Assembly (NCBI GenBank): GCA_030426085.1
Contig: JAUHYW010000002.1
Coordinates: 62,001-126,000 of the forward strand
Direction of reading: 5' to 3'
Source: a bacterium
GTDB taxonomy: Bacteria; Myxococcota_A; Bradymonadia; UBA7976; UBA1532
Length of the DNA: 64,000 nucleotides
A model generated the notes under the pieces. The model did no database searches. It had not been told where the DNA came from and was given only the letters and a program-made list of their open reading frames with translations. A program made the translations under genes and the position numbers. Shown in pieces: positions 14,345 to 52,539 of the stretch. How positions within the stretch are numbered: position 1 is the first letter of the stretch; every line of letters starts with the position of its first letter.

Positions 14345-14971
14345 CTACTTGCTGTAGAGCTCGACGATGAGCTGCTCGTTGATCGGCAGCGTCAGCTCGT
14401 CCCGGACAGGCTCGCCCTTCACGGTGCCGGTCCAGTCCTTCTTGTTCATGTCGAGCCACGAGGGACGGGGGCGCCGATCGGCCGCCTCGAGCGAGGCGAC
14501 GATGCGACCCACCTTGCGGCTGCGCTCCTTGACCGCCACCACGTCACCCGGCCGCACGCTGTACGACGGGATGTTGACCTTGCGACCGTTGACCGTGAAG
14601 TGGTTGTGACGCACGAGCTGACGCGCCTCGGTCCGGCTCGAAGCCATGCCCAGGCGGTACACCACGTTGTCCAACCGACGCTCGAGCAGAGCCAGCAGAT
14701 TCTCGCCGGTCACGCCCTTGGCGCGGTCGGCGCGCTGGAAGTACAGCCGGAACTGCTTCTCGAGCACCCCGTAGATCCGCTTCACCTTCTGCTTCTCGCG
14801 CAGCTGGTCGCGGTAGTCGCTGGCGCGCATGCGCCCCTGCCCGTGCATGCCGGGCGGGTACGGACGCCGATCGAAGGAGCACTTCTCGCTGTAGCACCGC
14901 TCTCCCTTGAGGAAGAGCTTCGTGCCCTCCCGACGGCAGAGACGGCAGACGGGGCCGTTGTAACGGGCCAT
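14345..14971 (-). CDS. rpsD: 30S ribosomal protein S4
   Basis: A 208-residue S4, a primary 16S rRNA binder that nucleates 30S assembly. The N-terminus keeps four Cys (9, 12, 26 and 31) that form a zinc site, so this is the zinc-binding C+ form. The S4 RNA-binding domain is at ~97-160 ([22 protein letters not shown]). It is 10 bp after rpsK. In many bacteria S4 represses its own operon; no specific target structure was identified here. Confidence 0.97.
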
Positions 14972-15789: not shown

Positions 15790-15903
15790 TCAGCCCTGCC
15801 GCTGCTTGTGCCGCGGGTTCTCGCAGATGACCCGCACATGACCGTGCCGGCGAATCACCTTGCACTTGTCGCAAATCCGCTTCACCGAAGCTCGGACCTT
15901 CAT
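15790..15903 (-). CDS. rpmJ: 50S ribosomal protein L36
   Basis: A 37-residue L36 read directly from the bases: [20 protein letters not shown], continuing to a C-terminus ending KQRQG. Zinc ribbon ligands are Cys11, Cys14, Cys27 and His32, so it is the zinc-dependent form. It lies between secY (91-bp gap) and rpsM, as in the E. coli arrangement; the adk, map and infA genes often found before it in other phyla are absent. Confidence 0.95.
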
Positions 15904-19581: not shown

Positions 19582-19980
19582 TTACCAGACCGAGCAGAGG
19601 TGCTCGCCGCCGATGTGCAGCGACCGCGCCTGCTTGTCGGTCATGACACCCCGCGACGTCGACAGGATGGCGACGCCGAGGCCATGGCGCACACGCGGCA
19701 GATTCTTGGCCTTCACATAGGCCCGCCGGCCGGGCTTGGAGACGCGCTCGAGGTGCGTGATCACCGGCAGATTGTCCGGGGTGTACTTGAGGTACACGCA
19801 GATCACGTCCTGCTTGTCATCCTGGATGACCTTGAAGTTGCGAACGAAACCCTCCTCGAACAGGAGGTTGACGATGCGCAGCTTCAGGTTCGAGGCCGGA
19901 ATGAGCACCTTGTCATGCCGGACCGCCGACGCATTGCGGATTCTCGTGAGCAGATCGGCGATCGGGTCGGTCATTCCCAT
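19582..19980 (-). CDS. rpsH: 30S ribosomal protein S8
   Basis: A 132-residue S8, an early 16S rRNA binder. It starts MGMTDPIADLLTRIRNA and ends in LSTSRGVMTDKQAR...GGEHLCSVW, the family signature. In E. coli S8 represses the spc operon by binding near rplE; here the rplE-rpsH spacer is 79 bp, has a hairpin and lacks rpsN, so the usual regulatory context is altered. Confidence 0.97.
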   Translation of the reverse strand: MGMTDPIADLLTRIRNASAVRHDKVLIPASNLKLRIVNLLFEEGFVRNFKVIQDDKQDVICVYLKYTPDNLPVITHLERVSKPGRRAYVKAKNLPRVRHGLGVAILSTSRGVMTDKQARSLHIGGEHLCSVW

Positions 19981-20059
19981 GGGTCTCTATCCTCAGTCCC
20001 GCGGTCGCCGTCGGCGACCGATTGAGGCGCAAGGCGCCGCTGATGTCGACGACTCGGTC
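19981..20059 (-). promoter_or_regulatory. rplE-rpsH spacer with hairpin; rpsN missing
   Basis: This 79-bp spacer is where rpsN (S14) usually sits. It encodes no S14-like peptide. It contains an 8-bp dyad CGGTCGCC/GGCGACCG around 20000-20020, which might be a translational operator or a processing site. Confidence 0.5.
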
Positions 20060-20617
20060 CTACCGAGCCCCGGCCGGCCGGCGGAACGGCATACCGAGAT
20101 GGCGCAGCAGCGCGCGGCTCTCCTCGTCGGTCTCGGCTGTCGTCACGATGGTGACGTTCAGCCCCTTGATCTTGTCCGTCTTGTCGTAGTCGATCTCCGG
20201 GAAGATGATGTGCTCCCGGATACCCAGCGAGTAGTTCCCGTGACCGTCGAAGCCCTTGGGGCTGACGCCGCGGAAGTCGCGCACTCGAGGCAGCGCCACG
20301 TTCAGCAGGCGGTCGAGGAACTCCCACATCCGCGCTCGGCGCAGGGTGACGGCGCAACCGATGGCCATGCCCTGCCGCAGCTTGAAGCCGGCGATGGAGC
20401 GCTTGGCTCGGGTGACCACGGCCCGCTGACCCACCAGGTCGCTCAGCTCCCGCTGTGCGCCCTCGATGATCTTCGGGTTCTGCACCGCCTCGCCGAGGCC
20501 CATGTTCGCCACGACCTTGACGATCTGCGGAACCTGGTGCGGGTTGCCGTACTTGAACTCCTCCTGGAGCGCCGGCACGACCGTCTCCCGGTACTTCGAC
20601 TGAAGCCGCGGAGTCAT
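20060..20617 (-). CDS. rplE: 50S ribosomal protein L5
   Basis: A 185-residue L5, which binds 5S rRNA and contacts the P-site tRNA. Contains [20 protein letters not shown] and [21 protein letters not shown]. The ATG at 20617 overlaps the rplX stop by ATGA (4 bp), so the two are coupled. Normal length with a short Arg-rich tail. Confidence 0.97.
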
Positions 20618-41075: not shown

Positions 41076-41237
41076 CTATTGACCTTCTCGATGCTCAGTG
41101 TGGCGCTGACAGGTCGGGCAGTACTTGTTGAGGACGAGCTTGCCTCGTACCGCGTCCCTGCTCTTCGAGAGCGAGTAGTTGCGCGTTCCGCAGATCGTGC
41201 ACTCGAGACCGATTCGAATTCGGCTCTTGCGGGGCAC
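41076..41237 (-). CDS. rpmG: 50S ribosomal protein L33
   Basis: A 53-residue L33 read from the bases, starting GTG 41237 and ending TAG 41076: PRKSRIRIGLECTICGTRN, continuing to KYCPTCQRHTEHREGQ. Four Cys (13, 16, 40 and 43) form the zinc ribbon, so it is the zinc-dependent type. An AGGAAAG ribosome site precedes the GTG. It lies between tuf and secE, the common tuf-rpmG-secE-nusG order. Confidence 0.92.
   Translation of the reverse strand: MPRKSRIRIGLECTICGTRNYSLSKSRDAVRGKLVLNKYCPTCQRHTEHREGQ

Positions 41238-50043: not shown

Positions 50044-52539
<2,496 letters not shown>

What the first reader, a model, noticed from the sequence alone, without database searches (positions are those of the whole stretch)
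19981..20059. rpsN (S14) missing from its conserved position
rplE is followed directly by rpsH; the 79-bp spacer has no S14-like peptide but does have an 8-bp dyad. S14 is essential, so the gene must be elsewhere. The spacer is also where S8 autoregulation acts in E. coli.
Basis: partly seen in the sequence, partly recalled or inferred. Interest (0 to 1): 0.5.

Follow-up and report, generated by a model that had tools for sequence, protein, structure and literature searches.

The report
Relocated zinc-free ribosomal protein S14 gene
This bacterium lacks the usual zinc-binding copy of a ribosome gene in its normal place and carries a zinc-free version elsewhere in the genome, a known kind of swap that also shows in about a third of the related genomes examined.

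Summary
rplE (20060-20617, minus) is followed directly by rpsH (19582-19980, minus) across a 79-bp spacer with no S14. The only S14 gene found in the draft genome lies on another contig (G000:C167, about 50071-50376, minus): an intact 101-aa zinc-free (C-) uS14, 147.4 bits against NCBI's non-zinc S14 model (cut-off 77). It is not an assembly gap: the same-genus genome and other relatives show the same junction. In the window's phylum, 49 of 146 genomes with both genes found have S14 away from rpsH; all 49 are C-. Of 97 with S14 beside rpsH, 32 were typed and 30 are zinc-type. So this is the known replacement of zinc S14 by a zinc-free form. In this order the zinc-free gene sits upstream of a DUF58 gene, behind a promoter-like motif; two family members that kept zinc S14 in spc lack it there. 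The 8-bp dyad is real but only mildly unusual (59 of 3000 shuffles match it). Ordinary in kind; mildly new are its frequency in this phylum and the two alternative gene slots within one family.

The parts
20060..20617 (-). rplE, ribosomal protein uL5
   Evidence: Pfam PF00673 142.9 bits and PF00281 81.9 bits
19981..20059 (-). rplE-rpsH spacer where rpsN lies in 78 of the 80 named loci; no S14 coding sequence here
20002..20020 (-). 8-bp perfect dyad with 3-nt loop; no special stability
20026..20038 (-). 5-bp hairpin GGCGC-CTT-GCGCC (mRNA sense); resembles one in the rpsN-rpsH gap of relative G006, possibly a remnant of the old rpsN-rpsH junction
   Evidence: 17 identities, 2 mismatches and 1 gap over 20 columns; 15 of 2000 shuffles score as high; no such match in G003
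19582..19980 (-). rpsH, ribosomal protein uS8
   Evidence: Pfam PF00410 162.8 bits. The relocated rpsN itself is outside the window: G000:C167 about 50071-50376, minus

Best explanation
The zinc-binding (C+) rpsN that once lay between rplE and rpsH was lost after a zinc-free (C-) rpsN, at a separate locus upstream of a DUF58 gene, took over. The single C- gene makes the cell's uS14 from a promoter of its own, so it no longer depends on the spc operon. Shown: absence from spc, one intact C- S14 elsewhere in the draft, the same state in relatives, the close link between C- type and off-operon location, and a promoter-like motif shared by relatives. Inferred: the order of events (gain first, loss second), that the motif is a working promoter, and that the protein is built into ribosomes.
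For: Only one S14 in the 10.1-Mb genome, 91.7 bits, no stops. Full-length match to NF006477 (147.4 bits, cut-off 77); below the cut-off of the type Z (zinc) model (64.1 against 77). The core holds 1 Cys instead of 4. Best PDB matches are 101-aa S14 chains. Same rplE-rpsH junction in G001, G002, G004, G005 and G011 of the family, in the named MAG record L031, and in G013-G015 of the sister family. In 19 of 19 held S8 loci of genomes with S14 elsewhere (18) or not found (G004), rplE lies directly upstream with no more than 181 bp between the hits. Phylum: S14 separate from S8 in 49 of 146, all 49 C-; beside S8 in 97, 32 typed, 30 C+ and 2 C-. rpsN and DUF58 in line, hits 71-529 bp apart, in 10 of 11 C- genomes of families f1 and f2; in the eleventh, G008, they are on different contigs. 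TTGC-N19-CANNNT upstream of rpsN in 8 of 10 tested (7 of 7 in f1, 1 of 3 in f2), 0.086 expected from shuffles; the motif was chosen after looking at the same sequences, so this is not an independent test.
Against: The genome is a draft of 178 contigs at 95% completeness, so a second S14 in unassembled sequence is not excluded. The phylum survey scored at most 40 candidates per genome, so second copies elsewhere could be missed; Table 1 of PMC3087516 (passage) lists Myxococcus xanthus with S14, L33 and L28 duplicates that sit together, a two-copy state that my survey did not show. Family f36 (G142, G168) has a C- S14 inside spc, so type and place are not perfectly linked. For G004 no S14 was found (81% complete). 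In G000 a cytochrome P460-like gene lies just upstream of rpsN on the same strand, so co-transcription with it is possible. No expression data.
Confidence: 0.9

Rival explanations
1. Assembly or sequencing deletion of rpsN in this contig.
For: Draft genome of 178 contigs.
Against: Other genomes share the junction, and an intact S14 lies elsewhere.
Confidence: 0.01
2. The C- gene is a Zur-repressed stress paralogue of the kind known in Bacillus, Streptomyces and mycobacteria, and a zinc S14 still exists but was missed.
For: C- S14 paralogues of this sort are documented, and Myxococcus xanthus is listed with duplicate S14, L33 and L28 (PMC3087516, passages). The genome does keep both L33 forms.
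Against: One S14 only in the deepest search (150 of 156 candidates scored); no spc copy; no zinc S14 found in any of the 49 genomes with a separate C- gene (at most 40 candidates scored per genome).
Confidence: 0.05
3. The spacer is kept as an S8-binding operator that replaced rpsN.
For: The spacers of several relatives hold hairpins; that of L031 folds better than all but 3 of 200 shuffles.
Against: The E. coli site is at rplE. The dyad is a perfect 8-bp stem with a 3-nt loop, without the internal loop and bulge that I recall for S8 sites (recalled, not tested). Fold z -0.56 here, -0.95 to -2.56 in four relatives. By eye the sequence is not conserved across the family. No 16S rRNA was found in the draft to compare with.
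Confidence: 0.04
4. Relocation of the original spc rpsN itself (same gene moved), not replacement by a different form.
For: The rest of the operon is in the usual order.
Against: The relocated gene is a longer, zinc-free type in 49 of 49 genomes, while the in-place gene is zinc type in 30 of 32 typed.
Confidence: 0.03

Closest known systems
Recurrent C+/C- replacement of zinc-ribbon ribosomal proteins (Brochier et al. on S14; Makarova et al. 2001), as summarised in PMC3087516
   Same: Two S14 forms; horizontal transfer, unusual gene order and duplications reported for S14 (passages read). The two original papers were not read: Makarova et al. is not held, Brochier et al. was not looked up.
   Different: That paper's Table 2 gives delta-proteobacterial S14 as zinc form only, with a 10% cut-off (section read); here 49 of 146 surveyed genomes of the window's phylum show only a separate zinc-free form.
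Zur-regulated alternative ribosomal proteins (rpsN2, rpmG2 and others)
   Same: C- S14 encoded outside spc.
   Different: Here the C- gene is the only S14 found, not a second copy.
Gammaproteobacterial-type non-zinc uS14 (NF006477)
   Same: 101 aa, zinc-free, full-length model match.
   Different: In the two gammaproteobacterial loci held here (L088, L102) it lies inside spc between L5 and S8.

Membership tests
Non-zinc (C-) uS14, NF006477 | Full-length match above curated cut-off | tested here: met
   147.4 bits, cut-off 77, positions 1-101 of 101
Non-zinc (C-) uS14, NF006477 | Zinc-ribbon cysteines missing | tested here: met
   1 Cys in the core where the zinc form has 4; zinc model NF005974 scores 64.1 against a cut-off of 77
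C- for C+ gene replacement | C+ copy absent from spc and from the genome | tested here: met
   within the limits of a draft genome
C- for C+ gene replacement | C- gene gained by horizontal transfer | tested here: inconclusive
   C- tree of 61 rows x 101 columns groups f1 with f2 (91/91), several deeper forks weak
Zur-regulated alternative ribosomal protein | Coexists with a zinc-binding paralogue | tested here: not met
   single S14 found in the genome
Zur-regulated alternative ribosomal protein | Zur box upstream | not tested
   only a promoter-like motif was searched
S8 operator of the spc mRNA | Located at the rplE initiation region | tested here: not met
   the feature is downstream of rplE; E. 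coli location from PMC10931766 passages
S8 operator of the spc mRNA | Resembles the 16S helix 21 S8 site | not tested
   no 16S rRNA found in the draft; no comparison with another 16S was made

The most novel reading that the evidence does not exclude
The common ancestor of this order carried both S14 forms, zinc type in spc and zinc-free upstream of DUF58, and descendants sorted them reciprocally: G003 and G006 kept the spc gene and have an empty DUF58 slot, the window's lineage kept the other. The family would then be a natural experiment on zinc-dependent against zinc-free ribosomes and on taking an essential ribosomal protein out of spc control.
Probability: 0.4. Interest if true: 0.35.

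Novelty: new member of a known kind. Interest (0 to 1): 0.22.

Why it matters
In the surveyed genomes of this phylum S14 replacement is not a rarity: 49 of 146, with 7 of 41 families holding both states. Anyone using spc gene order, or S14 in concatenated phylogenies, should expect it. It also gives within-family pairs that differ in zinc demand of the ribosome and in how S14 is coordinated with the rest of the operon.

Tried and rejected
Assembly artefact: rejected because relatives share the junction. Hidden S14 in the spacer: none. Second S14 match in G146: on reading the frame (L250) it looked like an excisionase-like protein, not S14 (my reading, no family search). Second weak match in G022: 22.5 bits, below the cut-off, with a stop; not pursued. 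Conserved RNA structure in the spacer: by eye the sequences differ across the family and fold z-scores are modest, -0.56 to -2.56 in the five folded; no alignment or covariation test was run. General zinc sparing: not supported, since S4 and L36 in the window and L31 keep their Cys; L28, L32 and S18 were not examined.

Whether G003 and G006 are nested within the C- genomes: unresolved. Holding the C- members of f1 and f2 (plus G004, type unknown) together as one clade is not rejected (p-AU 0.408), so a single gain after G003/G006 split off is also possible on these six proteins, although the tool assigns G003 and G006 to family f1 and not to the sister family. The tree used 27 of the 30 S8 loci; G031, G025 and G028 (family f4) were left out. 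The C- S14 tree left out G007, whose gene is cut by a contig end.

The reading of hairpin 20026-20038 as a remnant of the rpsN-rpsH junction rests on one relative (G006; 15 of 2000 shuffles as good); the other zinc-type relative, G003, shows no such match (860 of 2000).

Literature: judged by the titles and abstract starts listed (one search lists 20 of 43 papers, 15 of 565), show no paper on rpsN displacement in this group; subscription journals are not covered. Passages of PMC3353972 and PMC7247131 were seen and add nothing against or for.

Full report
Observation. The window holds an spc-type operon on the minus strand. Pfam identifies S17, L14, L24, L5, S8, L6, L18 and S5 in the usual order. 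L5 (20060-20617) and S8 (19582-19980) are separated by 79 bp without S14. The dyad at 20002-20020 is real, but 59 of 3000 dinucleotide shuffles and 18 of 809 window 79-mers hold one as long, and the spacer does not fold better than shuffles (z -0.56).

Where S14 is. A Pfam S14 search of the 10.1-Mb draft genome finds one match, on contig C167 (150 of 156 candidates scored). From the ATG it encodes 101 aa. It is the non-zinc form: NCBI model NF006477 at 147.4 bits over a cut-off of 77, zinc model NF005974 below its cut-off, and one instead of four cysteines in the core. The best-scoring solved chains are 101-aa S14 proteins.

Relatives. Among 57 nearest genomes, S14 was found in 48 and S8 in 46. 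Reading the two tables by hand, both were found in 45; S14 is away from S8 in 11 of them (G000, G001, G002, G005, G011, G013, G014, G015, G036, G045, G054) and on the same contig beside it in 34. In the window's own family (f1), G000, G001, G002, G005 and G011 have S14 elsewhere, G003 and G006 have a zinc-type S14 in the spc slot, and G004 has the same gap but no S14 found (81% complete). G007, G008 and G012 have a C- S14 but no S8 found, and G009 and G010 have neither. Of 80 named loci found with the window's L5, all 80 have L5 and S8 and 78 have an S14 match near S8; L031 and L035 have none. L031, the closest, is a TPA MAG, 'uncultured Myxococcales bacterium' (L5 81%, S8 86% identical), whose spacer is identical to that of G011.

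Phylum survey. Of 152 genomes (at least 90% complete), 148 have an S14 match and 146 an S8 match; in the 146 with both, S14 lies beside S8 in 97 and apart in 49. All 49 separate genes were read and none has four core cysteines (46 have one, 3 have two). Of the 97 adjacent genes, 32 were read: 30 have four, and 2 (G142, G168, family f36) have two and are C- in place. The other 65 were not read; their open frames are 62-94 aa. Of 41 families, 24 are adjacent only, 10 separate only, and 7 hold both states. In 19 of 19 held S8 loci from genomes without S14 beside S8 (18 with S14 elsewhere, and G004), rplE lies directly upstream. For comparison, Table 2 of PMC3087516 (2009; section read) lists delta-proteobacterial S14 as zinc type only, with a 10% cut-off. 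Its Table 1 lists Myxococcus xanthus with duplicates of S14, L33 and L28 that sit together (passage). No genome of my survey showed two true S14 genes, but at most 40 candidates were scored per genome.

The new home. In 10 of 11 C- genomes of families f1 and f2, rpsN lies upstream of, and in line with, a DUF58 gene, 71-529 bp from match to match; in G008 the two are on different contigs. In G000 a cytochrome P460-like gene lies just upstream of rpsN on the same strand. G003 and G010 keep the neighbourhood (a conserved gene divergent from DUF58, and beyond it the large gene that in G000 spans L208 11833-14367) without rpsN between, and G006 keeps DUF58 without rpsN upstream in the stretch held. 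So within one family the two gene slots are filled in alternative ways, and no genome of the family with both was seen. Upstream of the C- rpsN, TTGC-N19-CANNNT is present in 8 of 10 genomes (7 of 7 in f1, 1 of 3 in f2) against 0.086 expected from shuffles; the motif was chosen after looking at these sequences. It ends 47-60 bases before the start codon in 7 of them and 117 in G008. It looks like a sigma-70-type promoter (inference), which would make rpsN independent of spc. Promoter-like hexamers with an 18-base gap also lie upstream of DUF58 in G003, G006 and G010.

History. A tree of six ribosomal proteins joins f1 and f2 (100/99) and pairs G003 with G006 (99/99), but their place within f1 is open. 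A tree with the C- genomes of f1 and f2 (plus G004) as one clade is not rejected (p-AU 0.408). The C- S14 tree groups f1 with f2 (91/91), in line with one gain before they split, but has only 101 columns. Either the ancestor had both forms and they were sorted reciprocally, or G003/G006 split off before a single gain, or zinc S14 was regained.

The spacer. One 20-column stretch (17 identities, 2 mismatches, 1 gap) resembles the rpsN-rpsH gap of G006 (15 of 2000 shuffles score as high) but nothing comparable is found with G003 (860 of 2000). The spacer may therefore be what remained of the old rpsN-rpsH junction after a clean loss; this is suggestive only.

S8. The review PMC10931766 (passages read) puts the operator at the initiation region of rplE and states that the mechanism in B. 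subtilis or other species is unknown.

Verdict. A correct observation of an ordinary, known kind of event: replacement of zinc S14 by a zinc-free form encoded elsewhere. What is mildly new is its frequency in this phylum and the pair of alternative slots within one family.

Noticed in passing
window 41076-41237, minus strand: A zinc-type L33 gene (four Cys, GTG start), while the same genome also has a zinc-free L33 on contig C87; G001 shows the same pair, G003 and G006 only the zinc-free one.
   Followed up: partly
window 14345-14971 and 15790-15903, minus strand: S4 and L36 keep their zinc-ligand cysteines, so S14 was replaced without general zinc sparing.
   Followed up: partly
L145/L202 (G142) and L206 (G168): Family f36 has a zinc-free type S14 in the spc slot itself, with two of four cysteines left.
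   Followed up: no
G036 (L003), G045 (L005), G054 (L007): Other families of the class also carry a C- S14 away from spc. L003 and L005 show no DUF58 match beside it, which points to separate relocations; in L007 the downstream side is cut by the contig end.
   Followed up: partly
whole genome G000: No 16S rRNA gene was found in the 10.1-Mb draft (the same search also missed 5 of 14 control genomes).
   Followed up: no
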